Assembly: GCF_021191705.1 (NCBI RefSeq)
Contig: NZ_JAIWPU010000004.1
Span: 58,587 to 122,586 of the forward strand
DNA length: 64,000 nt
Origin: Proluteimonas flavola
GTDB taxonomy: Bacteria > Pseudomonadota > Gammaproteobacteria > Xanthomonadales > Xanthomonadaceae
Direction of reading: 5' to 3'
In this document: positions 33,664 through 48,374 of the stretch, piece by piece
Numbering within the stretch: position 1 is the first letter of the stretch
How the letters are laid out: the number at the start of each line of letters is the position of its first letter
Notes under the pieces: model-generated
Told to the model about the DNA's origin: nothing
What the model saw: only the letters and a program-made list of their open reading frames with translations
The model's database searches: none
Translations under genes and position numbers: made by a program

Positions 33664-36600
33664 TTTCTGAGCTGCCTGCGCGGCAGCGAACGTAGCTGCG
33701 CTCGCTCATGCCGCGGCCGAGACTTTCTGAGCTGCCTGCGCGGCAGCGAACGAAGCCCGCCACGCAGCAGTGGCGCGCATGTTTTTCTGAGCTGCCTGCG
33801 CGGCAGCGAACCCAAAACGCATCCGGCAGACCACCGTCGAACATTTCTGAGCTGCCTGCGCGACAGCGAACCGTGGCTTCGCCTACGGCAAGACCGGCGT
33901 TCTTTTCTGAGCTGCCTGCGCGGCAGCGAACGATCGCGCGGTCGACGGCACCTTCCTCGCGGCTTTCTGAGCTGCCTGCGCGGCAGCGAACGACTGGGCC
34001 TACGTGTCGGCCAAGGCCGTCGATTTCTGAGCTGCCTGCGCGGCAGCTAACGCGGTCGGGTCTTCCGCTTCGCTCGGCCGTACTTTCTGAGCTGCCTGCG
34101 CGGCAGCGAACCAGGCGCGGCTTGAGCATCGACCACAGGGTGGTTTCTGAGCTGCCTGCGCGGCAGCGAACGCCATGACCCACGGGTTATCGCGGCCATA
34201 GGTTTTCTGAGCTGCCTGCGCGGCAGCGAACATCGAACCGCTGGATGGCGAGATCTGCATCAATTTCTGAGCTGCCTGCGCGGCAGCGAACTCGGCCGTT
34301 GCGATGCGCCTGCACCGCTGGCATTTCTGAGCTGCCTGCGCGGCAGCGAACGCGCTGCTACGGCGAGGGTCGCGCGCCGGAGTTTTCTGAGCTGCCTGCG
34401 CGGCAGCGAACTCCCAAACCCGCTCGGTCGTCGCCTTCGTCTTTTTCTGAGCTGCCTGCGCGGCAGCGAACAGCAAGCCGGCACGTCCGCTGATCACCCA
34501 CAATTTCTGAGCTGCCTGCGCGGCAGCGAACGATCATGCGTCACTCCGATGCCGCATGATAGCTTTCTGAGCTGCCTGCGCGGCAGCGAACTAGTGGGGT
34601 TGTGGCGAGGGGGGATGGTTCATTTTCTGAGCTGCCTGCGCGGCAGCGAACGGCGAAGAACTGCGACGACAGGTTCCCGATCGTTTCTGAGCTGCCTGCG
34701 CGGCAGCGAACTCGCCGCCGGTGCCACTGCGCTTGTCGCGTCGGTTTCTGAGCTGCCTGCGCGGCAGCGAACACCAACGCCGGCTCGAGGAATCAGGGTG
34801 AGAATTTCTGAGCTGCCTGCGCGGCAGCGAACGGCGAGGCCGGCGTCAAGATCATCGCCGCGATTTTCTGAGCTGCCTGCGCGGCAGCGAACGTGGCGAG
34901 TTGCGCATCCTGGAGTCGCTGACCTTTCTGAGCTGCCTGCGCGGCAGCGAACGCCGCCTCCGGCGGCATACAGGCCGGTCGTCATTTCTGAGCTGCCTGC
35001 GCGGCAGCGAACTTCATGCGTGATCACTACGCCGCCCGTTCCAATTTCTGAGCTGCCTGCGCGGCAGCGAACGCTGTCGATGAACGCGGCGCGGCGCTTC
35101 CACATTTCTGAGCTGCCTGCGCGGCAGCGAACGCACGTCCAGCGTTATCTGCGGCGTCTATTCCTTTCTGAGCTGCCTGCGCGGCAGCGAACTCGAACGC
35201 ACCGGCTCCAATGGCTCCATGCATTTTCTGAGCTGCCTGCGCGGCAGCGAACTGAAGAAAATTGCCCCCGCGGCGTCGGAGATATTTCTGAGCTGCCTGC
35301 GCGGCAGCGAACATCACCGTTCGGCAGCTGACCGGTTGCCAGATTTTCTGAGCTGCCTGCGCGGCAGCGAACGCCGACCCACAGCACCGGCGTAGCGTCG
35401 TTGATTTCTGAGCTGCCTGCGCGGCAGCGAACCACGACCTCGAGGCCGAGCGGCACGCCATCCATTTCTGAGCTGCCTGCGCGGCAGCGAACCAGAAGAA
35501 GGAACTGCAGGCGGTGGCCCTGCATTTCTGAGCTGCCTGCGCGGCAGCGAACGCAACGTGTCGCCGCTGGGGAGATTGAGCGCATTTCTGAGCTGCCTGC
35601 GCGGCAGCGAACGCTGAAACCGATCCGCCGCGCGTCTCGATTTCTTTCTGAGCTGCCTGCGCGGCAGCGAACGAGGACTGACCATCAGCAGCTGCTGACG
35701 ATCGTTTCTGAGCTGCCTGCGCGGCAGCGAACGACCTGGTCCAGAAGGCCGGCAAACTCTACAATTTCTGAGCTGCCTGCGCGGCAGCGAACGACCTGCC
35801 CGAGCTCCGGGTGCATCGCGTGGATTTCTGAGCTGCCTGCGCGGCAGCGAACCTGACGGCTCGCACGTCGGCTTGATCGAAATGTTTCTGAGCTGCCTGC
35901 GCGGCAGCGAACGTGTTCGTCAACCCGAGGACCGCCGATCGACTTTTCTGAGCTGCCTGCGCGGCAGCGAACCAGTGCACTGGCGGTTGCCCCGTCACTT
36001 TCCATTTCTGAGCTGCCTGCGCGGCAGCGAACTTCGTGGCGCGCACGGTGGCGCCCTGGTCACTTTTCTGAGCTGCCTGCGCGGCAGCGAACTCGAACCA
36101 GACCACCACGCGCGCGCCCTCGTATTTCTGAGCTGCCTGCGCGGCAGCGAACGGCTTCATGCGCTCGCCGTTGGAGCGGGCAGTTTTCTGAGCTGCCTGC
36201 GCGGCAGCGAACCCGAACATGCTGACGAACATCGATCAGCTGATTTTCTGAGCTGCCTGCGCGGCAGCGAACCCTGAATGCTGTTCTTGCCGCCGCTGTC
36301 GTCGTTTCTGAGCTGCCTGCGCGGCAGCGAACGTCGCGATCATCACCGCGTTGGCCGGGAAGGATTTCTGAGCTGCCTGCGCGGCAGCGAACCTGGTGAA
36401 GGTGTTCCCGGGCGAAGACCCCGATTTCTGAGCTGCCTGCGCGGCAGCGAACCGCAGCTGTGGACCATCGGCGGCATCGTCGTTTTTCTGAGCTGCCTGC
36501 GCGGCAGCGAACGCTGCGATTGCGGTGGGCTTCAAGTGGGCCAATTTCTGAGCTGCCTGCGCGGCAGCGAACGAGCATCAGATGTTGCCCAAGCGTCCGC

Positions 36601-38916
36601 CTTCTTTCTGAGCTGCCTGCGCGGCAGCGAACAGGGCCGGTCGCGAACTCAGCGCCCTGCACTTTTTCTGAGCTGCCTGCGCGGCAGCGAACGACTTGGC
36701 ACCGAATCGCGGCGTCGAGCATGCATTTCTGAGCTGCCTGCGCGGCAGCGAACTCTGCGCAAGGATCGGGTCGCCGCTGGACACATTTCTGAGCTGCCTG
36801 CGCGGCAGCGAACGAAGCGGGCGCGGCAGGGGCGGCGGACAGGGCTTTCTGAGCTGCCTGCGCGGCAGCGAACGTTCCGCCCAGTAAGGCAGATCATGTC
36901 CGGGTTTTCTGAGCTGCCTGCGCGGCAGCGAACCGCCGGCGTTCGGCTTCGGTGTTTCCGGTTTCTTTCTGAGCTGCCTGCGCGGCAGCGAACGCTCAAC
37001 ATCAGCCGGTCGGCCGTGTCGGCATTTTCTGAGCTGCCTGCGCGGCAGCGAACACCGAAATGCTTCCAACCGTCGAACAGGCTCATTTCTGAGCTGCCTG
37101 CGCGGCAGCGAACGAGCGCGGCGCGGCGTTCGGCAGCAACCACCGTTTCTGAGCTGCCTGCGCGGCAGCGAACACATGATGGTTCCTCGGGTGATGCCGC
37201 TGGGCTTTCTGAGCTGCCTGCGCGGCAGCGAACCAGCGGCCGCATTGAGCGACGCCATGACGATATTTCTGAGCTGCCTGCGCGGCAGCGAACGAGGTCC
37301 TCGCGGCGAACTGGAACGTCGTCCATTTCTGAGCTGCCTGCGCGGCAGCGAACATCTCCGAGGCCGACTTCCTCGCCGCCAAGAATTTCTGAGCTGCCTG
37401 CGCGGCAGCGAACAGTTCATCGTGCATCGTCCGCGCCTGCGCACCTTTCTGAGCTGCCTGCGCGGCAGCGAACGATCCCCCACCGCCTCCACCGAAGTTG
37501 AGCGCTTTCTGAGCTGCCTGCGCGGCAGCGAACTCAGGTTCACCGGGTTGTTCCCGAAGGCTCCCTTTCTGAGCTGCCTGCGCGGCAGCGAACCGCCGGA
37601 TGCGGCAGCAGCCTCGGACGACGTTTTTCTGAGCTGCCTGCGCGGCAGCGAACAGGGTAACGCGGTGGTTTGGCCTTTCGCCGTTTTTCTGAGCTGCCTG
37701 CGCGGCAGCGAACGCAATCGCCTTGAACGCGAACTCGCTCGACACTTTCTGAGCTGCCTGCGCGGCAGCGAACGAGCCTGCCAGCAGCCAGGCCGTGCGC
37801 GCGGCTTTCTGAGCTGCCTGCGCGGCAGCGAACGATCCGTGCGACGAGAGCGTGCCCTCGGCCGATTTCTGAGCTGCCTGCGCGGCAGCGAACACCGATG
37901 CGACCGAGACAACCTGGCATTTTCGTTTCTGAGCTGCCTGCGCGGCAGCGAACACCAGGTTGTCGGGGCCGAACGGAAGGGCGGATTTCTGAGCTGCCTG
38001 CGCGGCAGCGAACGTGGTGTGGCGCGAGAACGTGCCCGCCGTGCATTTCTGAGCTGCCTGCGCGGCAGCGAACACGTACGACACGAAGTCCGGGATGCTG
38101 TCGGTTTTCTGAGCTGCCTGCGCGGCAGCGAACCAGTGCGGGGCCAGCCGCCTGCCACTGGTGCCTTTCTGAGCTGCCTGCGCGGCAGCGAACCAACCAA
38201 CCAGTGCGAACAGCCGCAGTGTCCCTTTCTGAGCTGCCTGCGCGGCAGCGAACTCCATATCCACGGCGACATCGCTGCGTACCGCTTTTCTGAGCTGCCT
38301 GCGCGGCAGCGAACCGGTGCTGGGCCCATACGTCGTCCACGGTCCATTTCTGAGCTGCCTGCGCGGCAGCGAACTGGCGAAGAACTGCGACGACAGGTTG
38401 CCGATATTTCTGAGCTGCCTGCGCGGCAGCGAACTCGCTGATTTTCAAGCTGCTCTCGCGCGGACTTTTCTGAGCTGCCTGCGCGGCAGCGAACCCGCCC
38501 GGCGTCGAGACGGCGGTGCTGCTGATTTTCTGAGCTGCCTGCGCGGCAGCGAACCGCATAATGTACATAGCGGCTGACCGTTCGTCTTTCTGAGCTGCCT
38601 GCGCGGCAGCGAACGTTTGGTGAGGCCCGAGGCATCCGAGCCGCCCTTTCTGAGCTGCCTGCGCGGCAGCGAACTATGTGCGGTGCCTTGGGCATGGCGT
38701 TCTCCTTTTTCTGAGCTGCCTGCGCGGCAGCGAACGCGTCAGGGGCGGCAACACTGGCTGGTGGTAATTTCTGAGCTGCCTGCGCGGCAGCGAACATCTA
38801 CGTGTTCATGGGCCTCGGTGATCGGCTTTTTCTGAGCTGCCTGCGCGGCAGCGAACGGCACGACGGCGCTGGCGAGCGACACGGTCAGTTTCTGAGCTGC
38901 CTGCGCGGCAGCGAAC
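33664..38916 (-). CRISPR. Type I-F CRISPR array, 88 repeats and 87 spacers
   Basis: 28-bp repeats recur every 60 bp. On the plus strand they begin TTTCTGAGC and end CAGCGAAC; the crRNA strand is the minus strand, where they begin GTTCGCTGCC and end GCTCAGAAA, with a CTGCC/GGCAG stem as in I-F repeats cut by Cas6f. Counting the periods gives 88 repeats; 82 spacers are 32 bp and five are 33 bp (34712, 36693, 38254, 38675 and 38796 onward). Repeat variants occur only near 33.8-34.05 kb (one G to A, one G to T), marking the old end. The leader end is at 38.9 kb beside cas6f. Two spacers (34652-34683 and 38375-38406) are near-identical. Confidence 0.98.
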
Positions 38917-39045: not shown

Positions 39046-39612
39046 TCAGAACCAGGGAACGGTGGCTGTCCCGCTCAATCCATAACTATTGAACTGCCTC
39101 GCGATGGCCTCCTCTACCGGTGGACCCAATGCGATGAACAGGCAGAACGGCTGCCCCGTACTGCGACTACGCAGATGCACGTAGGGCAGGTTCGGGCGTC
39201 GTTCCACAGTGCCGGGGATGGCGTCGGCTGCCTGCTGTTCGGTTTCTCCCTTGCGTCGCATGCGACGCCTGCGCAGGCGGTCGGCATTCGTCTTGAACTG
39301 GCGACGCTGTACCGTCCGGTGCAGTGTATCCGCGGGAGCTGGTGCGATTTCCGACAGGCGGGTATGGTCTCGCATCCCCTTGAGCCAGTCTGTCCGCAGG
39401 AAGTCCTGCAAGATTTCGCCGCCCCCATGCAAGCGCAACACATTGCCCAACGCGCGCGGATTGAGACTGTAGCCGGGGAAGCTGACGCCGATGTTGCCCA
39501 GCCGCTGCTGCACCAGAGCCAAGTGCAGGCGATCGTACAAGGCGCCGAGCAACTGCGCTGTACTGAATTCGGGATCGGGGACGACACGCAGGTCGACATA
39601 GTGGGTCGTCAT
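39046..39612 (-). CDS. cas6f: Cas6f (Csy4), crRNA endoribonuclease
   Basis: 188 residues, as in the family (187 in Pseudomonas). The general-base histidine sits at residue 30 in LYDRLHLALVQQ. The Arg-rich helix that reads the repeat hairpin is obvious (QFKTNADRLRRRRMRRKGET), and the C-terminus ends YGLSGTATVPWF. It cuts the array transcript at the base of each CTGCC/GGCAG hairpin and stays bound to the crRNA. It is last in the csy operon, five bases after cas7f, and its stop borders the leader. Confidence 0.95.
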   Translation of the reverse strand: MTTHYVDLRVVPDPEFSTAQLLGALYDRLHLALVQQRLGNIGVSFPGYSLNPRALGNVLRLHGGGEILQDFLRTDWLKGMRDHTRLSEIAPAPADTLHRTVQRRQFKTNADRLRRRRMRRKGETEQQAADAIPGTVERRPNLPYVHLRSRSTGQPFCLFIALGPPVEEAIARQFNSYGLSGTATVPWF

Positions 39613-39617
39613 GGCGA

Positions 39618-40682
39618 TCAGCCCGCATCGCCGAACACGCCGCCACGGATCAGGGTGGCGATGACGAAATGCTGCTGCTCCACCTCGGGCGCCTTGTCCT
39701 TGATGACCCAGCCATCGAGCAGGCTGTAGAAATCCAGCTTCGCCTTGGGCTGGCGATACGCCTTGCCTTGCGTGGTGACCGAGCCATAGGGCTCGATGGC
39801 GATCGGGCCGTTCTCGTCGGCTTCCGGGTACCAGGTGTCGATGGTGCGCAGGGCGTTGCCAATTTTTTGAGTGTGTATGCCCGCCACTGTTTCACCACCA
39901 AAAGCAACGGAGTACAGCGTCTTGCTTTTCTTAACTGCCTTTCCGTTGACAGTTCTTGTTTGACTTTGATCGAGGATCAGTTCCTGCGAGGGAAACACTT
40001 CCTGCCCCGCGCCCACGCGCACGAAGGCGGTGATCTGCAGCAATACATGCGAAGTGCCCGCCAACCCGGCTTCGATCAGCGACGCGAGCGCGGCAAGGTC
40101 GGCAGACTCCCCCTCCGGTGCGGACAGCGTGCGCAAGGAATGATCGTGTGCCTGGAAGGTCCACTGCGAGACCGGCTTGCCATCCTTCAAGTGCGCGACC
40201 TGCACTTCGACCTGCTCGGCGCCGATGCGGTTGCGCCACAGGAAGCGGCCGTTGGCCAGGTTGGCGGCATAGCGCCGCGCCAGTTCGCCGAAGCCGTGCT
40301 GCTGCGCGTAGCCGCCAACGGTGGCGATCAGCTTCTTGCGGTAGTCGGCATCGTTGCAGGCGGAAGGCTCACCCGTTCCGCCCAACACGCGCAGGGTGAA
40401 CTGCACCTTGAGTGTGTCGGCCTCCAGCGGCAAGGCCGCCACGTCCACGGCCTGAAGGTTGGGATTCTCGATGGCGGCATCGAGCTTGGCCGGGTCCTGG
40501 TCCTTGGTCTTGAGCCGGTTGGAAATGGTGCCGCGCACCGATTTCTCGCGGATCTTCACCGGTTGCCAGCCGGCCGAGGCGGCGCGAGCGTCCCAGTCGC
40601 CGGAGAAGAACAGCGCATCGGAAGGATCGAGCTTGCGCTCGAAGGCGAGGACGGAGGCGGTCTTGAGCGTTTCGTTTGCCAT
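39618..40682 (-). CDS. cas7f: Cas7f (Csy3), backbone of the I-F Cascade
   Basis: 354 residues. The N-terminus [23 protein letters not shown], then LFFSGDW, is the Csy3 start. [20 protein letters not shown] and [18 protein letters not shown] are further family blocks. Six copies coat the crRNA; their thumbs flip out every sixth spacer base. It lies between cas5f (26 bp upstream) and cas6f. Confidence 0.95.
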
Positions 40683-40708: not shown

Positions 40709-41707
40709 TCAGTCGAAGTCGTAGAGCTGCTCGAACGGGTCGGCAGCGGGACGGTAGTGGTTGCGGCAGCGGTACAGACGGTCATCTGGCCGGCTATCGG
40801 CGTACCAAAGCAGTTGTTGCGGCGAAGCCAGGCGATGCGGGCTGATCCATTCGCCAATGGAGTACAGGCTTTCGACGAAGCGGAACGGGGTGGTCGCATC
40901 GCGCGCGTTGGCGACGCTGCCCGGTGGATGAAGCTCGCCGAGCGCGCCATAGCCCACCGGGATCGGCACGATCCAGCCCTGGCCCTTGCGATCGTTGAGC
41001 CATTCGCCCTTGCCGTCCTTTCCGTTCGGCTGGTAACGCCAGTTGATGCGCGACAGCGACAGCCAGGCGTCCAGACGGTTGGCCGCAGGTTCCGTCGTTT
41101 GCAGTTCAGCCAGGCGGGTGTCCAGCAGGTCGTCGCGCGACACCAGTGCAAAACCCGGCAGCAGGCGCATGCGGGCCTTGCGGAATTCCGCAGCGCAGTC
41201 GTCTTCGGTCCCGGTCAGTTCGACGCTCCAGGAGCGGTCGCGGAATCGCCCCGGCTGCTCGGGAGGCAGCACGCTTCCTCCAGCGATGCGCATGCCGGCC
41301 AGCAGCTCGGCCACGGTCGCGATGTCGCCGTCCCGGCTTTCCGGTTCGCGCTTCCAGCGTTCGCTGCTGACCGCGAACACCAGACTCAGCTGCAGGTGGA
41401 TGCGGCCTTCCTCGACGATGGCGGCGGTACCACCGTCCTTGCCCACCGGGTTGCGGGTCAGGCGGAAGGACTTCACGAAGCCGCCCTCGGTGACCTGTTC
41501 CTGATGGTCGTGGCAGACCGTGCCGACGGCCTTGAAGGCAAGGTCCAGCCCGGCGTGTTCGGTCTTGCGCTGGAGCGCCCACATCAGGCCCATGAAGGCG
41601 GTCATCGACGGGAAGCCGTGGGTCAGCGGGCTGGAGACCGCATTGGCGTTCTGGACCCGCAGGCGCGGCAGCACCAGCAGGTAGTCGAAACGGAGACTGC
41701 CGCTCAT
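40709..41707 (-). CDS. cas5f: Cas5f (Csy2)
   Basis: 332 residues from the ATG at 41707, which overlaps the cas8f stop (ATGA). The start [20 protein letters not shown] followed by [20 protein letters not shown] is typical of Csy2. It caps the 5' handle of the crRNA with Cas8f. Longer in-frame sequence upstream is the shadow of cas8f. Confidence 0.94.
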
Positions 41708-43044
41708 GACTGGCCTCCGACCGGCGCGCGTCGCTGCATCGGTACCGGCCAGGCCGCATCGACGATGGCCTGCCTTGCCCAGTGCTTGTATTCCGCATCG
41801 CCAACAGCGGTCATCCCGGCTTCGCGCAACTGTGAGTTGACCCAGTTGACGAAGCGGCCGGCAACCTCGTCCAACCAGTCGCCACGGTCGTAGGCGGCCT
41901 TGAAGTCTTGGTCTTCCTGTTCGTGTGCTTCTCGCGGTGGGAGTTCGATGCGCTCGGGATCGAGCCAGAGCTGTTCGCACAGCGGCAGGTGGCAATCGGG
42001 ATCGCGGGTCCAGCCTGGCTCGAGGCGGGCGTGGATGCTGGCGGCGAACACCGGCAGTTGGGAACCCAGCGCCTGTTCGATGGCTTCGCGCCTGTCCCGC
42101 GTCTCCTTGTTCCTGTCCGGATCGGACTGCAGGAAATCGGCCAGCGTCCTCACCAGCGGGCGCACGCCTTCGAAGTAGGTGAACTTTTCCAGCACCGATT
42201 CCAGGTGGAGCAGGTTCTGTGGCGACTCGCCGGTCCACGTCGGCGGCAGCGAGGCCAGCAGGTAGTTCACGCCGCCACGTTCGCTGTTGAGCTGGGAGAT
42301 GTTTTGCGGCTTGGTCCCGCCCAGCTTGCGTGCGACCAGATTGCGGTAGTCGCGATAGGGGACTTCGTGCGTCTCCTTCACCCTGAACGCCTGCCGCGCC
42401 AGCTTGTTGGCCTCGCCGAACCGGGCATCCTGGATATCGGCATGCACTGCATGAGCCAGACTGCTGGAGAACAGCGGCTGCAGCAGGTGGTAGTCGGTAT
42501 CGTTCGATGGTCGATCGCTGACCAGCCAGTAGACCTGCTTGGCAGCTTCGTGCGAGCTGGGTGCCGGGTCGCTGCGTACCAGATTGCCGAATGCCTCCAT
42601 CCAGCCGGTGGCGATATCGGCATCCGGGTGCAGGACGCTGCGCAGGTCGGCATCGCCGGCCTGCATCCAGTCCAGCAGCCGGCGACCCTCCACCTCGATC
42701 TTGAGGAACTTGAACACGTCCAGCGCCGCGGCGTTGCCGACCACGTCCTCGGCATAGTCTTCGCCCAGCAGGTGGCTGCCGATTTCCACATGTGGCGGCA
42801 GGCTGCGGGGCGCGACGTGCAGGCTGCTGCCGCGCGCGTCGGGATGGGTGGCCTTGAGCACGTGGGTCACGGCCTGGATCTGGCCGACCCGGCGCGCCGC
42901 ATCGGCCAACCACGTCGCATAGTCGTACCTCGATGTCGTGCCGGCATCGTCCTCCTTGCCCTTCAGCTTGGCCTCACGCCGCGCTTCGATGAAGGCGGCG
43001 ATGGCATTGCGGAAGGCTCTTCCTCTTTCCGTCAGATCAGACAT
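41704..43044 (-). CDS. cas8f: Cas8f (Csy1), large subunit of the I-F Cascade
   Basis: 446 residues, near the usual 430-440. Csy1-type segments include AFRNAIAAFIEARREAKLKG, YDYATWLADAARRVGQIQAV and GGTKPQNISQLNSERGGVNY. Cas8f reads the CC PAM and holds the crRNA 5' end. It is first in the csy1-4 operon, so the operon promoter must lie in the 43045-43190 region. That region also contains a 21-bp palindrome and the CC-flanked match to the adjacent pseudo-spacer. Confidence 0.95.
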   Translation of the reverse strand: MSDLTERGRAFRNAIAAFIEARREAKLKGKEDDAGTTSRYDYATWLADAARRVGQIQAVTHVLKATHPDARGSSLHVAPRSLPPHVEIGSHLLGEDYAEDVVGNAAALDVFKFLKIEVEGRRLLDWMQAGDADLRSVLHPDADIATGWMEAFGNLVRSDPAPSSHEAAKQVYWLVSDRPSNDTDYHLLQPLFSSSLAHAVHADIQDARFGEANKLARQAFRVKETHEVPYRDYRNLVARKLGGTKPQNISQLNSERGGVNYLLASLPPTWTGESPQNLLHLESVLEKFTYFEGVRPLVRTLADFLQSDPDRNKETRDRREAIEQALGSQLPVFAASIHARLEPGWTRDPDCHLPLCEQLWLDPERIELPPREAHEQEDQDFKAAYDRGDWLDEVAGRFVNWVNSQLREAGMTAVGDAEYKHWARQAIVDAAWPVPMQRRAPVGGQS

Positions 43045-43089
43045 TCCTTGGATCCCCGTTCATTCAGCAAAAGCCGTGATAGCAGGTGG

Positions 43090-43110
43090 TCATCTCATCA
43101 AATGAGATGA
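43090..43110. promoter_or_regulatory. Palindrome in the cas8f leader
   Basis: TCATCTCAT-CAA-ATGAGATGA, a perfect nine-base inverted repeat 46 bp before the cas8f start. It could be an operator or an mRNA hairpin. It shares CTCATCA with the outer arm of the vapB operator 170 bp away. Confidence 0.5.
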
Positions 43111-43154
43111 GCAATCGGGCATTCCCGTCGCCCGTACAAGACAGCGCCAGGTCA

Positions 43155-43186
43155 ATATTATCCAATCTTGTGTTTGTGTTAAAAAT
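43155..43186. promoter_or_regulatory. Putative divergent promoter region for cas8f and the mini-CRISPR RNA, with Cascade target
   Basis: This is the only AT-rich stretch between cas8f and the mini-CRISPR. On the minus strand GATAAT (43157-43162) is a good -10, with TTTTTA 17 bp upstream as a weak -35, pointing at cas8f. On the plus strand TATTAT (43156-43161) could start an RNA just before the pseudo-repeat. CC at 43162-43163 followed by AATCTTGTGTTTGTGT (43164-43179) is the CC-flanked protospacer matching the pseudo-spacer. Cascade bound here would cover both start regions. Hexamer calls are by eye. Confidence 0.55.
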
Positions 43187-43189
43187 CCA

Positions 43190-43271
43190 ATCCACTGCCG
43201 GACAGGCAGCTCAGGAAAATCTCGTGTTCGTGTGATACCTCGATTCAACTGCCGCGCAGGCAGCGCTCATC
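43190..43271 (+). ncRNA. Degenerate two-repeat mini-CRISPR (CreR/CreA-like regulatory RNA candidate)
   Basis: Two repeat-like units lie on the plus strand. Unit 1 (43190-43217) matches the array repeat at 22 of 28 positions, with the CTGCC/GGCAG stem intact and a CTCAGGAA handle. Unit 2 (43244-43271) keeps the stem and loop exactly (CTGCCGCGCAGGCAGC) but has lost its 3' end. The pseudo-spacer between them is about 26 bp, shorter than the 32 of the array. Its first 16 bases, AATCTCGTGTTCGTGT, match the CC-flanked site at 43164-43179 except at positions 6 and 12. Cas6f should still cut both stems and yield a short crRNA. Transcription is not shown. Confidence 0.75.
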
Positions 43272-43306
43272 AGTCAATGACTACAATGCAGTCATTGACT
43301 GATGAG
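43266..43306. promoter_or_regulatory. Operator of the toxin-antitoxin operon (17-bp inverted repeat)
   Basis: CTCATCAGTCAATGACT and AGTCATTGACTGATGAG are perfect inverted arms around ACAATGC, ending ten bases before the antitoxin start. A TACAAT hexamer (43282-43287) in the middle is a likely -10. This is what is expected for autorepression by a ribbon-helix-helix antitoxin. The TGAGG at its right end is the ribosome site. Confidence 0.75.
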
Positions 43307-43315
43307 GTTCCGGAC

Positions 43316-43585
43316 ATGGCGACCATGACGATTCGCAACATCGATGACGACGTGAAGGCGCGCCTTCGGGTACGGGCGGCGCAGCATGGGCGCTCGATGG
43401 AGGAGGAAGCCCGCAGCATCCTGCGAACGGCGCTTGCCACGGACCCCAGGCCGGGAACCGGAGCCACCCTGGTCGCCGATATCCGGGCGCTGGTGGAACC
43501 GTTCGGCGGTGTCGAACTGGAACTGCCGCCGCGCACGCCCATGCCTGCCCCTCCCGATTTCAGCGAGGGCAGGTCTGGCGAATGA
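43316..43585 (+). CDS. FitA/VapB-type ribbon-helix-helix antitoxin
   Basis: 89 residues from ATG 43316, chosen because TGAGG lies eight bases upstream and the protein then begins MATMTIRNIDDDVKARLRVR, the FitA-like ribbon-helix-helix start. AAQHGRSMEEEARSILRTAL completes the DNA-binding fold. The Pro/acidic C-terminus (PPRTPMPAPPDFSEG) is the usual toxin-wrapping tail. Its stop overlaps the toxin start. The palindrome just upstream is its probable operator. A longer GTG start at 43232 would run through the mini-CRISPR and is rejected. Confidence 0.88.
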   Translation: MATMTIRNIDDDVKARLRVRAAQHGRSMEEEARSILRTALATDPRPGTGATLVADIRALVEPFGGVELELPPRTPMPAPPDFSEGRSGE

Positions 43586-44001
43586 TCCTCCTCGACACCA
43601 ATGTCATCTCCGAACTATTCAATCCGGTGCCCAGCGCGAAGGTGGTGGATTGGCTGCAGCGACAGGCCGATGGCGAGGTGTTCACGACCGCCATCACGCG
43701 TGGCGAACTGCTGTTCGGTGTCCATATCCTCCGGCAAGGCCGGCGGCGGGATACCTTGCTTGCCGGCCTGTCGCGGATATTCCAGGTGCGTTTCCCGGAA
43801 CGCGTGCTGCCCTATGACGAGGCCGCCGCCGATGCGCATGCGGAAATCGCCGCCCAGCGCCGTGCGAGAGGACGGACGAGCAGCCAATCCGACCTGATGA
43901 TCGCCGGCATCGCCCGCTCCCGTGGCGCGGAACTGGCGACACGCAATGTCAGGGATTTCGAGGATTGCGGGATCAGCGTGATCGATCCATGGAATATCTG
44001 A
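43582..44001 (+). CDS. FitB/VapC-type PIN-domain toxin
   Basis: 139 residues. The PIN acidic residues are in place: D5 (ILLDTNVISELF), E42 (TRGELLFGV), D104 (SQSDLMIAGIA) and D125 (NVRDFED). It should be an RNA-cleaving toxin held in check by the overlapping antitoxin gene. The pair sits between cas8f (divergent) and cas2/3 (convergent, 21 bp from its stop), splitting the normally continuous I-F cas operon. Confidence 0.92.
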   Translation: MILLDTNVISELFNPVPSAKVVDWLQRQADGEVFTTAITRGELLFGVHILRQGRRRDTLLAGLSRIFQVRFPERVLPYDEAAADAHAEIAAQRRARGRTSSQSDLMIAGIARSRGAELATRNVRDFEDCGISVIDPWNI

Positions 44002-44022
44002 TCCCCTTTCGCATGCAAGCTC

Positions 44023-47000
44023 TCAGGCGCTGCTGAAGCCCAGCCACGGGTGCCAGTTCCAGCCTTGGGTGCTCTCCGGCACTTCCACGACGGCGAACTT
44101 CTTCGCGGCGTCTTCCAGCGACAGCTCCAGCGGTCGGATCTGTTCGGCAAGCAGTGCGACAAGATCGAACTCGCCCCAGGCGCCGATGCGCTCGCCCGCT
44201 CCCAGCGTCACCGCGTGCAGTAGGCTGCGCTCGATGGGGACGTAGAGATTGCGGCCGCGTCGCGCCGGGTCGTCCTCGACGCGATGCAGGACCAGGCGAT
44301 CCTCGTCCTCATCCGGCAGGAACACCAGCGTCGCGGTCGGCATGGCATCGTCACGGAAGGGCTGTTGCTGCGGCAGCACGCCGGTCAAGGCCGCCTGCGG
44401 ATGCTGCCAGCCGCTGGCGGCGTTCAATCCGTGAACCTGTCCACTCGTGTCGCCCGCATACGGCAGCATGCAGTCGGCCATGCGCGCCTGCTCCAGATCG
44501 ACGATGCGCTGCTTGGGCAGGCAATCCCCGGCAACGCGCGGACGAATGCGCGGCAACGCGGTGAGTACCCGGTACTCCTCCGGCGACATCAGCTTGCCCA
44601 GGCGATGGGCCGTCAGGCGGAAGGGATGGCTAGCCGGTGCATGGTCTTTCTCGAAGCCTGGTCGCACGAAGACCGCAGGCGGCCTGCCATCGGGCCCGGT
44701 GCCGGGCCGGAAATGGCGCATGTTGGTGTCGAACACCAACATGTTCGCTGTGTCGCCGCGCTTGTGCCGATGCCGCTGCACGCGCCCGGCAAGCTGGATC
44801 AGCGATCGCATCGAGGACGGTTCGGCCACGGCCCAGTCCGCATCCCAGTCGCGGCCGACCTCGCAGACCGGGGACGCGAGGACGACGAACAGATGGTCGT
44901 GTTCGGGATGGACATCGAGCGCATTGCGGATGACCGGCAGGCCATAGACGCCCTGCCCATCGCCACGCCGGTTGAACGCGGCATCGAGCTGGTGCTCGAT
45001 GGCCGAGCGTTGCAGCAAGGGGAAGCGGGCGTGGTAGACGCACAGGTGGATGCGGGTGTTTTCCGGTGCGCCCAGCGCGAACAGCGCCTGCGCCACGTCG
45101 AACAGCGGATCGATGTTGGCCATGCGCACGATGCCGAAGCTGACGCGCTTGCCGCCGATCGGATCGATTTCGGCATGGCTGCGATGCAGCCGCAGGCAGG
45201 CGTCGAGGACGTAGCGGGCGAATTCGGCGCGGACCTTCGCCTCCGGCAGGTTCCTGGCGATGTCCAGCGCAACCAGCTCGGCCCGTCGCAGCGGCTCGGC
45301 CTTTTCCAGCTTCGCTGCGCGCTTGCCGACGAATTGTGCGTGCCTGCCGGCAAAATCCGCCGCGTCGGGACAGGTCGCAACCTGCACGCCGAATTCATCG
45401 GTCCACAGGCAGGGAACGTCCACCCGATCCGTGTTTTGTCCGCCGTGATTGCCGCGGTTGCGCCGGTACTGGATGCGCCCGGCGCGATAGGCCTGGAACA
45501 TGCCCTCGACCAGCGCCGGCGGCAGTGTGGCCGAGGACAGCAGCACGCGCGTGCCGAGCATGCCGGCCCAATGCACGAGCCGGGTCAGTGCGGGCAGGTC
45601 GCCGAGGTCGTAGTCGTCCAGTTCGTCCAGCACCAGGTCGGCGCTCATCAACCGCAGCATCGGCGCGATCTGGCGACCGGCGCGCAATGCCTCGGTGGCG
45701 GGCACCAGGTGGTCCACGGTGCAAACCAGCATCGGCGCCGACAGCAGCGCGCGGATGTCGGGATCGTGCAGGGCGCGCGACAGCAGCGGATGGTCGGCGG
45801 TCACGCCTTCGTACAGGACGTGGCTGTCCTCCTCGATCAGGTCCTGCACCGATGCGGAGCCATGCCGCTCGGCCTTGTCCTCGTAGAACTCGAACAGGGC
45901 GCGGCTGGCCGAACCGCCGACGCGGATCGCCAGTTCGTCCTCGCCCAGGTGCAGGTCGCTGCGGTAGCTGCGCCCGGTCTGCAGGGTCAGGGTGCGTAGG
46001 CCCAGGGCGTAGGTGGCACGCAGCCCCTGCTGCGGGTCGGCCAGCGCGTAGAGGATGCGGGCATTGGCCAGGGTCTTGCCGCAACCGGTGGAGGCCATGT
46101 TGACGATGAAGCCGCCGTGTTCGCGGGCCACCTCGCGCAACCCGGCAGCCGCGTCGAAAGCCTTGTCCTGCCAAGAGAACCTGGGATCGGCGCTGCGCTT
46201 GCGCAGGCCGCGATGGTTGGCCAGCCGCGGCAGATGGCGCTCGAAGCCGGGCAGCGCGTGGGCGATCAGGCCGGCATCGCGGGCCACGCCCAGCAGGTGC
46301 TCGTCCAGCGGCTGCTTGAGGCCGCCGTCGCGATCGGTATTGGCGTACAGGCGGGTGTTGCCGTCGCCGCGCAGGCGCTGGGTGGAATCCTTCGCCAGGC
46401 CGGAATAGTGGTGATCGGCCAGCATCAGGCTGAGCCGGGCCAGGTGCATGACGTAGGGATTGCCGAGCCAGTCGCCGCCACGGCGCTGGCGCAGGTCCAG
46501 CAGCCGCCGCGCCAGGCGTGCGGCTTGCGCACGCCACTTCGGTTCGGTCACCGGCAGCGGCCCGGCGGGTTGCCAGTAGGGTTCGATGCGTGCGCGCTCT
46601 GCGGGCTGGCGGATTTCATTCCAGTCGTGCGCCACCTGCGATAGCGGGTCTTGCAGCCAGAGCGGGTTGTGGCCGCGCCTGCGTCTTCCCAGCCGCGCCT
46701 GGGTGCCGTCGTCGTTCTCCACCGGCACCACCGGCAGGCGATGATGCGTGGCCACCAGCCAGGCGATGGCCGATGCCAGCGGCGGCAGGCCGCGAAACGG
46801 GGGTGAGGCCGCGCTATCCAACCCGTCGCGTCGATAACGGCCCGGCGCAATCCATGCCGATTCATCGGCAACGTCCGGGTCTGCCAGCCGCCGCAGCCAG
46901 GCTTCGTCGTCGTCCTGGCCGACGAAGGCCAGGAACAGGCGCAGCGAGACCCATTCGTGGCGATACAGGTTCCTCTCCTGCAAGCGGCCTTGCAGCCGTG

Positions 47001-47400
47001 CCTGGAAAGCGACGCTGGCCTTGCCCAGGTCGTGCATCAGCGCGGCCAGTTGCGCGAGCAGGCGGATGTCCTCGGCCGTGTGCCAGTCGTTCTCGTCGCC
47101 GCGCCGCAGCACGTTGCGCACGGTCGTGTCGGTCGGCACCGCGCCCTCGGCATTGAAACGACGGGCATCGCCGACGATCCACAGCAGTTCGCTGTGGTCG
47201 CGGCCGCGGATCCAGTGGCAGGCCACGGCGGTGTTCTTGCGCGCGGTCCTGCGCAGCAGCTTGCGCAGGGTATCCAGGCCCGCCTCGGTGATCGGAGTCT
47301 GCCAAGTGCGGTCGCCACGGCGTTCGGCGAACTGGTCGAGGATGCGGCGGGTCTCGGTCAGCGCGCGTTTGCCGCACTGGGAGATCAGCAGGATGTTCAC
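44023..47400 (-). CDS. cas3: Cas2/3 fusion, nuclease-helicase and adaptation subunit
   Basis: 1,125 residues. The N-terminal 90 or so residues form the fused Cas2 domain (MNILLISQCGKRALTETRRI). The HD nuclease has HD at 123-124 in AALMHDLGKAS. The helicase has Walker A ASTGCGKT near residue 440, the DExD-type box VLDELDDYDLGD and SSATLPPALVEG, and VGRDWDADWAVAEP with QLAGRVQRHRHK late in the protein. I-F Cas2/3 works with Cas1 in spacer integration and is recruited by Cascade to destroy targets. It overlaps the cas1 stop by four bases. Confidence 0.96.
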   Translation of the reverse strand: MNILLISQCGKRALTETRRILDQFAERRGDRTWQTPITEAGLDTLRKLLRRTARKNTAVACHWIRGRDHSELLWIVGDARRFNAEGAVPTDTTVRNVLRRGDENDWHTAEDIRLLAQLAALMHDLGKASVAFQARLQGRLQERNLYRHEWVSLRLFLAFVGQDDDEAWLRRLADPDVADESAWIAPGRYRRDGLDSAASPPFRGLPPLASAIAWLVATHHRLPVVPVENDDGTQARLGRRRRGHNPLWLQDPLSQVAHDWNEIRQPAERARIEPYWQPAGPLPVTEPKWRAQAARLARRLLDLRQRRGGDWLGNPYVMHLARLSLMLADHHYSGLAKDSTQRLRGDGNTRLYANTDRDGGLKQPLDEHLLGVARDAGLIAHALPGFERHLPRLANHRGLRKRSADPRFSWQDKAFDAAAGLREVAREHGGFIVNMASTGCGKTLANARILYALADPQQGLRATYALGLRTLTLQTGRSYRSDLHLGEDELAIRVGGSASRALFEFYEDKAERHGSASVQDLIEEDSHVLYEGVTADHPLLSRALHDPDIRALLSAPMLVCTVDHLVPATEALRAGRQIAPMLRLMSADLVLDELDDYDLGDLPALTRLVHWAGMLGTRVLLSSATLPPALVEGMFQAYRAGRIQYRRNRGNHGGQNTDRVDVPCLWTDEFGVQVATCPDAADFAGRHAQFVGKRAAKLEKAEPLRRAELVALDIARNLPEAKVRAEFARYVLDACLRLHRSHAEIDPIGGKRVSFGIVRMANIDPLFDVAQALFALGAPENTRIHLCVYHARFPLLQRSAIEHQLDAAFNRRGDGQGVYGLPVIRNALDVHPEHDHLFVVLASPVCEVGRDWDADWAVAEPSSMRSLIQLAGRVQRHRHKRGDTANMLVFDTNMRHFRPGTGPDGRPPAVFVRPGFEKDHAPASHPFRLTAHRLGKLMSPEEYRVLTALPRIRPRVAGDCLPKQRIVDLEQARMADCMLPYAGDTSGQVHGLNAASGWQHPQAALTGVLPQQQPFRDDAMPTATLVFLPDEDEDRLVLHRVEDDPARRGRNLYVPIERSLLHAVTLGAGERIGAWGEFDLVALLAEQIRPLELSLEDAAKKFAVVEVPESTQGWNWHPWLGFSSA

Positions 47401-48374
47401 GCGCCCACCTGCGCGGCAGTCTCCAGGGCCACGGCCTTGAGGGTGTCGATCATGAAATCCAGCGATTCGTTGCGGGTCAGCGCCTCGATGCAGTTGCGGC
47501 GGAACTGCTGCTCGTCGTCTCCGCGCATCGCCGACAGGAAGGCCTGCGGCAGGATGCTGGCGTCCTTGACCAGGTCGGCCGCGTCGAACACCAGCCCGCC
47601 GCGGCGGGTCTTGCCGTGGAGCACCGCCAGCCCGTGCGGCAGGCCCAACACCCAGGTAGCGGTGGCGCCCAGCCCATAGGCCAGGTAGTTGCCGTGATCG
47701 AGGAAGCGGTTGGCCGGGTCGCTGCCGCTGCCGCGCTTGGCGCGGGTGAAATCGCCATAGCCGACGGTGTCGACCGCCAGCTTGAACAGCGCCTTGGTCA
47801 GGCGCGCCTCCTCAGTCAGCAGGGCGGTGTTGTCCTGGGCCAGCTCGATGTTGCGCGCCGTGCGCGCCAGCAGTTCGTCCAGACGGCCGGCATCGGCCTG
47901 AAAGCCAGCGTCGCGCAGATGCCGATGCGTCCACTGTCTGCGCAGGCGGTCGACACGGGCGCGCTGGAAGGCCTTGGCCGCGTGCAGCCGCAGATCGTCG
48001 TCGAACCAGAAGCGCACCCAGGCCTGCAGGTACTCGGTGGGGCGGTACTCGCTCTGCGGCGAGAACCAGGCCACTTCCACGTCCATCTCGTTGGCCGAGA
48101 ACAGCGGCGTGCCACCGCCGCCGCAGAAGCCGACCAGCACCCCGGCCTTGGCCAGTTCGCGCATCGCCGCCTGGGTGATGGAGGTGCCGGTGCCGAGCAA
48201 CACCGTCGTGGTGTTGGCGATCGGGATGTTCCAGTACAGCGAGCGCTTGCCGGCATCGGTGACGTACTCGACGCGACCGCCGTTGACCAGTACCCGGCAG
48301 TGCTGCAGGTAATAGAGGTTGGCCCGCTTGGAATGCAGGATGGTCTTCAGATCCGACGGCGCGATATCGTCCAT
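47397..48374 (-). CDS. cas1: Cas1, integrase of the I-F system
   Basis: 325 residues, the normal I-F length. It opens SDLKTILHSKRANLYYLQHC and VLVNGGRVEYV. The metal ligands are in ALLTEEARLTKALFKLA (Glu), LGLPHGLAVLHGKTRR (His) and LVFDAADLVKD (Asp). With Cas2/3 it integrates spacers at the leader. It heads the cas1-cas2/3 operon; the 5' region contains no repeat-like sequence. Confidence 0.96.
   Translation of the reverse strand: MDDIAPSDLKTILHSKRANLYYLQHCRVLVNGGRVEYVTDAGKRSLYWNIPIANTTTVLLGTGTSITQAAMRELAKAGVLVGFCGGGGTPLFSANEMDVEVAWFSPQSEYRPTEYLQAWVRFWFDDDLRLHAAKAFQRARVDRLRRQWTHRHLRDAGFQADAGRLDELLARTARNIELAQDNTALLTEEARLTKALFKLAVDTVGYGDFTRAKRGSGSDPANRFLDHGNYLAYGLGATATWVLGLPHGLAVLHGKTRRGGLVFDAADLVKDASILPQAFLSAMRGDDEQQFRRNCIEALTRNESLDFMIDTLKAVALETAAQVGA

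What the first reader, a model, noticed from the sequence alone, without database searches (positions are those of the whole stretch)
43162..43271. Mini-CRISPR whose pseudo-spacer targets the putative cas8f promoter with mismatches only at flipped-out positions 6 and 12
Seen: two degenerate I-F repeats with intact Cas6f stems flank a ~26-bp pseudo-spacer. Its first 16 bases (AATCTCGTGTTCGTGT) match 43164-43179 (AATCTTGTGTTTGTGT), which is preceded by CC, the I-F PAM in the correct position. The mismatches are at 6 and 12, exactly the bases type I Cascade does not pair, so all 14 pairing positions match. Known: CreA/CreR RNAs with degenerate repeats and short seed matches guide Cascade to repress promoters without cleavage. 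Inferred: a Csy-guided autorepressor of the csy operon. It would release cas expression when crRNA or Cascade is sequestered (for example by anti-CRISPRs). Its position beside a protein toxin-antitoxin pair inside the cas locus is unusual.
Basis: partly seen in the sequence, partly recalled or inferred. Interest (0 to 1): 0.95.

Follow-up and report, generated by a model that had tools for sequence, protein, structure and literature searches.

The report
CRISPR guide that throttles its operon
Beside its CRISPR genes this bacterium carries a tiny two-repeat CRISPR whose guide matches DNA at a predicted promoter of those same genes, and is therefore likely to hold the production of the CRISPR machinery in check; relatives keep guide and target matched even though both sequences change.

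Summary
Confirmed. A two-repeat mini-CRISPR (psi-repeat 1 43190-43217, guide from 43218, psi-repeat 2 about 43244-43271) lies divergently beside cas8f. Guide bases 1-16 match 43164-43179, after a CC PAM, except at positions 6 and 12. That target lies between the hexamers of the only sigma-70-like site found in 42990-44100, which points into cas8f. Guide and target co-vary: 45 of 92 non-duplicate cas8f loci carry such a pair, with 42 different seeds; mismatches are 74 of 90 at positions 6 and 12 but 21 of 450 at 1-5 and 7-11. In 33 of the 45 the target lies 230-289 bp from cas8f, mostly before a creT-like module as in Acinetobacter I-F CreTA; in 11, the window included, it lies within 160 bp and that module is not detected. 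The window is best read as a type I-F CreR (cas autorepressor); review passages I read name I-B, I-E and V-A, or type I in general. All 19 cas3-cas8f gaps above 700 bp hold at least one recognised toxin-antitoxin component, of seven kinds, directed like the mini-CRISPR: a recurrent docking slot. Repression is inferred; there are no expression or binding data.

The parts
43164..43179 (+). guide target (protospacer) in the predicted cas8f promoter
   Evidence: matches guide positions 1-16 except 6 and 12
43162..43163 (+). CC, the I-F PAM, directly 5' of the target
   Evidence: sequence; CC as the I-F PAM in PMC10097628 section 6
43155..43182 (-). predicted sigma-70 promoter of cas8f: TTAACA (43182-43177), 16 bp, TAATAT (43160-43155)
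   Evidence: only promoter-like site in 42990-44100 (two overlapping registers), shuffle mean 0.3; own matrix score 9.1
43190..43217 (+). psi-repeat 1: stem 43195-43209, 5' handle CTCAGGAA 43210-43217
   Evidence: Rfam CRISPR-DR4 E 3.7e-5, below its gathering score; 5-bp stem
43218..43243 (+). pseudo-spacer (guide), 26 nt
43244..43271 (+). psi-repeat 2: array-identical stem-loop 43249-43263, degenerate handle
41704..43044 (-). cas8f/csy1, first gene of the presumed repressed operon
   Evidence: Pfam Cas_Csy1 6.3e-133; TIGR02564 5.7e-107
40709..41707 (-). csy2 (Csy complex)
   Evidence: Pfam Cas_Csy2 3.3e-113
39618..40682 (-). csy3/cas7f
   Evidence: Pfam Cas_Csy3 6e-149
39046..39612 (-). cas6f/csy4, expected to cut both psi-repeats
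   Evidence: Pfam Cas_Csy4 6.2e-61
33664..38916 (-). CRISPR array, 88 repeats of 28 nt (one with a stem change), about 60-nt period
   Evidence: outer bounds read from the first and last stem
43266..43306 (.). 17-bp perfect inverted repeat with 7-nt centre; TACAAT at 43282-43287: putative TA operator/promoter
   Evidence: sequence, by eye; not listed by the promoter scan
43316..43585 (+). FitA-like RHH antitoxin
   Evidence: Pfam FitA-like_RHH 7.3e-22
43582..44001 (+). PIN-domain (VapC/FitB-like) toxin
   Evidence: Pfam PIN 8.5e-14
44023..47400 (-). cas2-3 fusion, far side of the slot
   Evidence: TIGR02562, Cas3_I-F_Cas2
47397..48374 (-). cas1
   Evidence: TIGR03637 7.8e-154

Best explanation
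The element is a two-repeat mini-CRISPR whose guide matches, at all 14 positions that a type I complex would pair, a CC-flanked site inside the predicted cas8f promoter, so a Csy complex carrying it likely binds there and represses its own operon (a type I-F CreR). Inferred steps: Cas6f cuts both psi-repeats, giving an RNA with the CUCAGGAA handle, a 26-nt guide and the psi-repeat 2 hairpin; Csy binds it; a match that stops at about position 16 would allow binding without full R-loop formation and so block RNA polymerase between the -35 and -10 hexamers rather than trigger cutting by Cas2-3; when array crRNAs or anti-CRISPRs draw Csy away, cas8f-csy expression would rise. Shown by sequence: the anatomy, the register, the PAM, the promoter-like hexamers around the target, the co-variation in relatives, and the lack of a detectable creT-like module between target and cas8f.
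For: Anatomy and register. The only promoter-like site in 42990-44100 flanks the target and points into cas8f; no terminator-like site found. 45 of 92 non-duplicate loci show handle plus CC-target; all 45 have a 5-bp stem although none was required, against 380 of 9000 random places. Controls for the same search: 1/92 opposite strand, 1/92 and 3/92 in cas8f coding DNA, 5/1840 shuffles. Mismatches at 6 and 12: 74/90; at 1-5 and 7-11: 21/450. Close relatives show coupled changes at paired positions: L077/L080 at 3, L106/L110 at 8, L025/L027 at 10. The creT profile hits 0 of the 11 short-distance loci. In 8 of those 11 a promoter-like site scoring 7.6-12.3 on my matrix abuts or flanks the target toward cas8f.
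Against: No transcript, binding or reporter data. No null was computed for my promoter scores: on the same stretches the opposite strand's best site scores 2.1-10.5, so single scores of 7-9 mean little (L109: 7.6 toward cas8f, 8.3 on the other strand). In L006 (the window's nearest mini-CRISPR relative) and L028 the best sites (7.8, 6.4) have their -10 at the far edge of the target, and L114 has only 4.7. The mini-CRISPR's own predicted promoter is weak in the window (5.0). The roughly 104-nt leader holds a hairpin and short ORFs (by eye), so a compact toxin RNA unlike the modelled creT is not excluded. The Fisher p-value treats loci as independent, and some are close kin. In the swap control a guide met another locus's gap at 11 or more of 14 in 42 of 1406 trials; I did not check how many of these are kin.
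Confidence: 0.8

Rival explanations
1. A compact CreTA: the target promoter drives a small toxic RNA hidden in the roughly 104-nt cas8f leader, and the guide is its antitoxin; cas8f control is a by-product.
For: 33 of 45 relatives have the target 230-289 bp away, 30 of them with a creT-profile hit, 26 of those 30 being in the model by construction; I-F CreTA in the same cas3-csy1 gap is established in Acinetobacter (PMC10097628 section 6). The leader has a hairpin and short ORFs (by eye).
Against: The creT profile has no hit in the window nor in the other 10 short-distance loci. In L106, L110, L077 and L080 the predicted -10 ends about 40-47 nt before cas8f, leaving hardly any room. No terminator-like site between promoter and cas8f in the window.
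Confidence: 0.12
2. A CrePA-like arrangement: the guide represses the neighbouring FitA/PIN toxin-antitoxin pair, which is released when Csy fails.
For: TA genes sit directly downstream of psi-repeat 2, in the same direction; TA components recur in 19 loci.
Against: The best CC-flanked guide match on the TA side (220 nt scanned) is 8 of 14 in the window and 5-8 of 14 in all 13 TA loci that have a guide, the level of the shuffled null. The TA has its own TACAAT within an inverted repeat (by eye).
Confidence: 0.03
3. A silent relic of a CreTA or mini-CRISPR.
For: psi-repeats are degenerate; the mini-CRISPR promoter is weak; 6 of 19 TA-bearing loci have no qualifying mini-CRISPR, three of them with stem remnants by eye.
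Against: In the window all 14 paired positions match and both stems are intact; a relic would drift at 1-5 as at 6 and 12.
Confidence: 0.04
4. A protein operator repeated twice, with no RNA guide involved.
For: Two similar 16-mers 54 bp apart in one promoter region.
Against: Relatives have different pairs (42 seeds in 45 loci), CC-flanked and in crRNA register behind a Cas6f-type stem and handle, with mismatches concentrated at 6, 12 and 18.
Confidence: 0.01

Closest known systems
CreR, cas-regulating RNAs (types I-B, I-E and V-A according to a passage of PMC13131331; type I and V-A in general in passages of PMC12737573; original paper not held)
   Same: crRNA-like RNA from a mini-CRISPR; partial match to the promoter of the cognate cas genes; presumed autorepression
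   Different: type I-F; target between the -35 and -10 of the predicted cas8f promoter; a type II TA pair beside it; repression untested here
CreTA of type I-F CRISPR-Cas in Acinetobacter (PMC10097628; section 6 and passages read)
   Same: same cas3-csy1 gap; psi-repeat 1, psi-spacer, psi-repeat 2; CC PAM; divergent from the mini-ORF; position 6 unpaired
   Different: the window has no detectable creT and its target promoter leads into cas8f; Acinetobacter leaves positions 6, 11 and 18 unpaired
CrePA (CRISPR-repressed protein toxin; PMC12737573 section 3.3 read)
   Same: protein toxin gene beside a CreA-like guide
   Different: a full antitoxin-toxin pair with its own inverted repeat; no guide target found there
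Haloarchaeal CreTA of H. hubeiense (PMC8501985, passages read)
   Same: positions 1-5 and 7-11 pair; 6 and 12 dispensable by mutation
   Different: type I-B, with an RNA toxin

Membership tests
CreR | mini-CRISPR with degenerate repeats outside the array | tested here: met
CreR | guide partly complementary to a PAM-flanked site in the promoter of cognate cas genes | tested here: met
   match and PAM; the promoter is a prediction
CreR | no toxin gene under the same target promoter | tested here: inconclusive
   no creT-profile hit, but an unlike compact toxin RNA is not excluded
CreR | effector-dependent repression of cas transcription | not testable with these tools
   needs reporter or RNA-seq
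CreTA | guide with PAM-flanked target near a cas gene | tested here: met
CreTA | creT toxin gene downstream of the target | tested here: not met
   window and the other 10 short-distance loci without creT-profile hit; profile built from 27 loci with the target 196-283 bp away
CrePA | guide target in the promoter of a protein toxin | tested here: not met
   best TA-side match 8 of 14
Type II TA (FitAB-like) | RHH antitoxin followed by PIN toxin | tested here: met
   Pfam
Immune crRNA of the I-F array | 32-nt spacer between standard repeats | tested here: not met
   26-nt guide, degenerate repeats

The most novel reading that the evidence does not exclude
The cas3-cas8f gap of type I-F loci is an evolving CRISPR-guardian slot. 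A creA mini-CRISPR founds it, usually with an RNA toxin (creT). Protein toxin-antitoxin cassettes of at least seven kinds dock behind psi-repeat 2 and can take over the addiction role. In several lineages creT is absent and the guide is aimed at the cas8f promoter itself, turning an antitoxin into a type I-F autorepressor (CreR), as in this window; in others only the TA remains.
Probability: 0.4. Interest if true: 0.78.

Novelty: new variant of a known kind. Interest (0 to 1): 0.66.

Why it matters
If right, some type I-F systems regulate themselves through their own RNA-guided complex, so anti-CRISPRs that disable Csy would raise cas expression. The 45 natural guide-target pairs are an evolutionary read-out of which positions a Csy complex needs (1-5 and 7-11 kept, 13-16 largely kept, 6, 12 and 18 free), useful for I-F CRISPR interference. 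The TA slot brings three known ideas (CreTA, CreR, type II TA) into one place and makes their exchange during evolution testable.

Tried and rejected
Rejected: a protein-operator reading (42 different seeds); TA regulation by the guide; the modelled creT in the window. Candidates rejected: L069 (best target 7 of 14) and a second L068 hairpin (8 of 14). The handle-plus-target search found nothing in the 47 other loci, 36 of which have gaps of 150 bp or less. TA loci without a qualifying mini-CRISPR: L046, L053, L060, L065, L103, L104; by eye L060, L065 and L103 hold stem remnants. L085 has a creT-profile hit (4.7e-21) but no qualifying mini-CRISPR.

Rows dropped and limits of the samples: one search kept the best 80 of 393 relatives. 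The creT profile left out the short-distance loci and L026, L027 and L082. Profile hits of loci inside the model are expected by construction; outside it L026, L027, L082, L085 and L107 hit at E below 1e-3, while L032, L081 and L083 did not. (88 rows) also left out L026, L027 and L034 and lost L025 (start mis-set); it is the quick tree, since the careful search did not finish, and it labelled L083 as short-distance although its target is 246 bp away. Only ORFs in the mini-CRISPR's direction, and only from gaps above 700 bp, were given to Pfam for the TA count. Rfam at gathering scores showed only CRISPR repeats in the five loci searched, no creT family.

Not found in print: an I-F CreR, or TA genes in this slot, in the searches and 58 of an open-access library. 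The original CreR and CrePA papers were not among the listings. Of PMC12948488, PMC9458426 and PMC10810201 I saw passages only; PMC9458426 reports that a haloarchaeal creTA gap carries a strong promoter for downstream cas genes, so target promoters in creTA-like loci may serve cas8f too.

Full report
WHAT IS THERE. The window holds a type I-F locus on the - strand: an 88-repeat array, cas6f, csy3, csy2, cas8f, then a 978-bp gap, cas2-3 and cas1. In the gap, on the + strand, lie a two-repeat mini-CRISPR and a FitA-like antitoxin / PIN toxin pair. Psi-repeat 1 is 43190-43217 (Rfam CRISPR-DR4, E 3.7e-5, slightly below its gathering score), so guide position 1 is 43218 without any appeal to the target. 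Guide positions 1-16 equal 43164-43179 except at 6 and 12, and the target is preceded by CC. Psi-repeat 2 keeps the array's own stem-loop. No other match to the stem-plus-handle pattern lies outside the array in the 4.22 Mb genome, and no third guide match beyond control level.

THE TARGET IS IN A PROMOTER-LIKE SITE. In 42990-44100 the promoter scan finds one site in two overlapping registers: - strand TTAACA 43182-43177, 16 bp, TAATAT 43160-43155 (shuffle mean 0.3), and no terminator-like site. The target occupies the space between the two hexamers, overlapping the -35 by three bases. The predicted start is about 104 nt before the cas8f ATG. All promoter statements are predictions.

CO-VARIATION. 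cas8f relatives came from 30 of 395 family genomes, the window's own included, one more genome of the same genus (2 of 52 with the window's own), and named GTDB records (the best 80 of 393). After removal of 20 duplicates 92 loci remained. Requiring only a CTCAGAAA-like handle (6 of 8) and a CC-flanked match of at least 11 of 14 scored positions, 45 of 92 loci qualify; all 45 have a 5-bp hairpin (G-T pairs allowed) directly before the handle, against 380 of 9000 random places in the same gaps. The same search gives 1 of 92 on the other strand, 1 and 3 of 92 on the two strands of cas8f coding DNA, and 5 of 1840 shuffles. In an earlier set of 38 loci, guides set against other loci's gaps reached 11 or more in 42 of 1406 trials, and shuffled guides in 30 of 3800. 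Positions 6, 12 and 18 were not scored, yet mismatch there in 36, 38 and 40 of 45 loci; positions 1-5 mismatch in 0, 1, 0, 0, 3 and positions 7-11 in 1, 4, 4, 6, 2. Pooled: 74 of 90 at 6 and 12 against 21 of 450 (Fisher p 2.5e-55, loci treated as independent, which overstates it). There are 42 different seeds (positions 1-5 and 7-11) in 45 loci. A guide meets its own target at a mean of 12.9 of 14, a number raised by the criterion, and other loci's targets at 5.5 (41 of 1980 at 11 or more). Close relatives show coupled changes: L077 and L080 at position 3, the two Malikia loci L106 and L110 at 8, L025 and L027 at 10 (L027 also has a mismatch at 11). This is what an RNA guide under selection in a type I complex should look like; PMC8501985 (passage) reports that mutating positions 6 or 12 of a haloarchaeal CreA has no effect.

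TWO ARCHITECTURES. In 33 of the 45 loci the target is 230-289 bp upstream of cas8f, often followed by the PAM complement GG and a TTGACA-type -35 (for instance L009, L012, L014, L021, L025, L067), then a conserved stretch with an AGGAGG-like motif and a hairpin ending GGGGATTCTA. 30 of the 33 hit the creT profile, 26 of them by construction; L032, L081 and L083 do not. L029 (196 bp, in the model) also fits. This resembles the Acinetobacter CreTA, whose creT has a Shine-Dalgarno motif and a mini-ORF, divergent from creA, in the same cas3-csy1 gap (PMC10097628 section 6). In 11 loci, the window included, the target is 72-159 bp from cas8f and the profile finds nothing (0 of 11). In Malikia (L106, L110) and the MS502 pair (L077, L080) the predicted -10 ends about 40-47 nt before cas8f, so if that promoter is real cas8f is what it drives. 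On the quick cas8f tree the short-distance loci appear in about seven separate places (labels included L083 in error).

HOW IT LIKELY WORKS. Inferred: Cas6f processing, Csy loading, binding at the cas8f promoter without cutting because pairing stops at about position 16, repression, and release when Csy is drawn away. Reviews describe the same logic as CreR: for types I-B, I-E and V-A (PMC13131331, passage) and for type I and V-A in general (PMC12737573, passages). An I-F case was not found in the searches; the primary CreR paper was not among their listings, so it may mention one.

THE TOXIN-ANTITOXIN SLOT. Gap size separates the loci: of 36 gaps of 150 bp or less none has a mini-CRISPR; 30 of 34 gaps of 150-700 bp have one; of 19 gaps above 700 bp, 13 have one and all 19 carry at least one Pfam-recognised TA component, read in the direction of the mini-CRISPR. 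Three loci had no measurable gap; two of them have a mini-CRISPR. Kinds: FitA/PIN (window, L006, L046, L053, L055, L061, L071 with both parts recognised; L058 antitoxin and L068 toxin only scanned), nucleotidyltransferase/HepT (L103, L104; in L005 only the nucleotidyltransferase scanned), Phd/PIN (L028; in L029 only the PIN scanned), PaaA2/ParE (L064; in L067 only the antitoxin scanned), BrnT/BrnA (L065), AbiE (L060: DUF6088 with AbiEi just under cut-off, and AbiEii), MqsR (L077; partner not scanned). L080 shows the state without TA: its psi-repeat 2 is followed, by eye, by an intrinsic-terminator-like hairpin, at which L077 has the MqsR cassette instead. No guide target was found on the TA side (best 5-8 of 14 in 13 loci). 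I infer that the TA is an independent addiction cassette; a hand-over from creT to protein TA is a hypothesis.

LIMITS. No expression data. The mini-CRISPR promoter of the window is weak by my matrix (5.0), whose weights are recalled and whose scores have no null. L006, L028 and L114 do not show the window's promoter layout at the target. The loci searched are those nearest to this cas8f, not a random sample of I-F systems.

Noticed in passing
L009, L025, L026 (upstream of cas8f): Two tandem CC-flanked copies of the target, about 24 bp apart, before the creT-like module: the guide may bind twice.
   Followed up: partly
   Followed up: partly
L077 against L080: Near-identical mini-CRISPRs; L077 has an MqsR toxin cassette where L080 has an intrinsic-terminator-like hairpin (hairpin by eye).
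   Followed up: yes
L035: Azotobacter chroococcum cas8f is 82% identical to the window's although it belongs to Pseudomonadaceae, suggesting horizontal transfer; its gap is 76 bp without mini-CRISPR.
   Followed up: no
L006 and L028, psi-repeat 1: Stem rewritten (CTATC/GATAG; CCGAA/TTCGG) with pairing kept, while the handle stays close to the standard (CTTAGAAG; CTTAGGAA).
   Followed up: yes
window 43266-43306: Perfect 17-bp inverted repeat with TACAAT at its centre, directly after psi-repeat 2; similar TACAAT-bearing repeats precede the FitA genes of L061 and L053 (by eye).
   Followed up: partly
L085: creT-profile hit (E 4.7e-21) without a qualifying mini-CRISPR: possible decayed antitoxin guide.
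   Followed up: no
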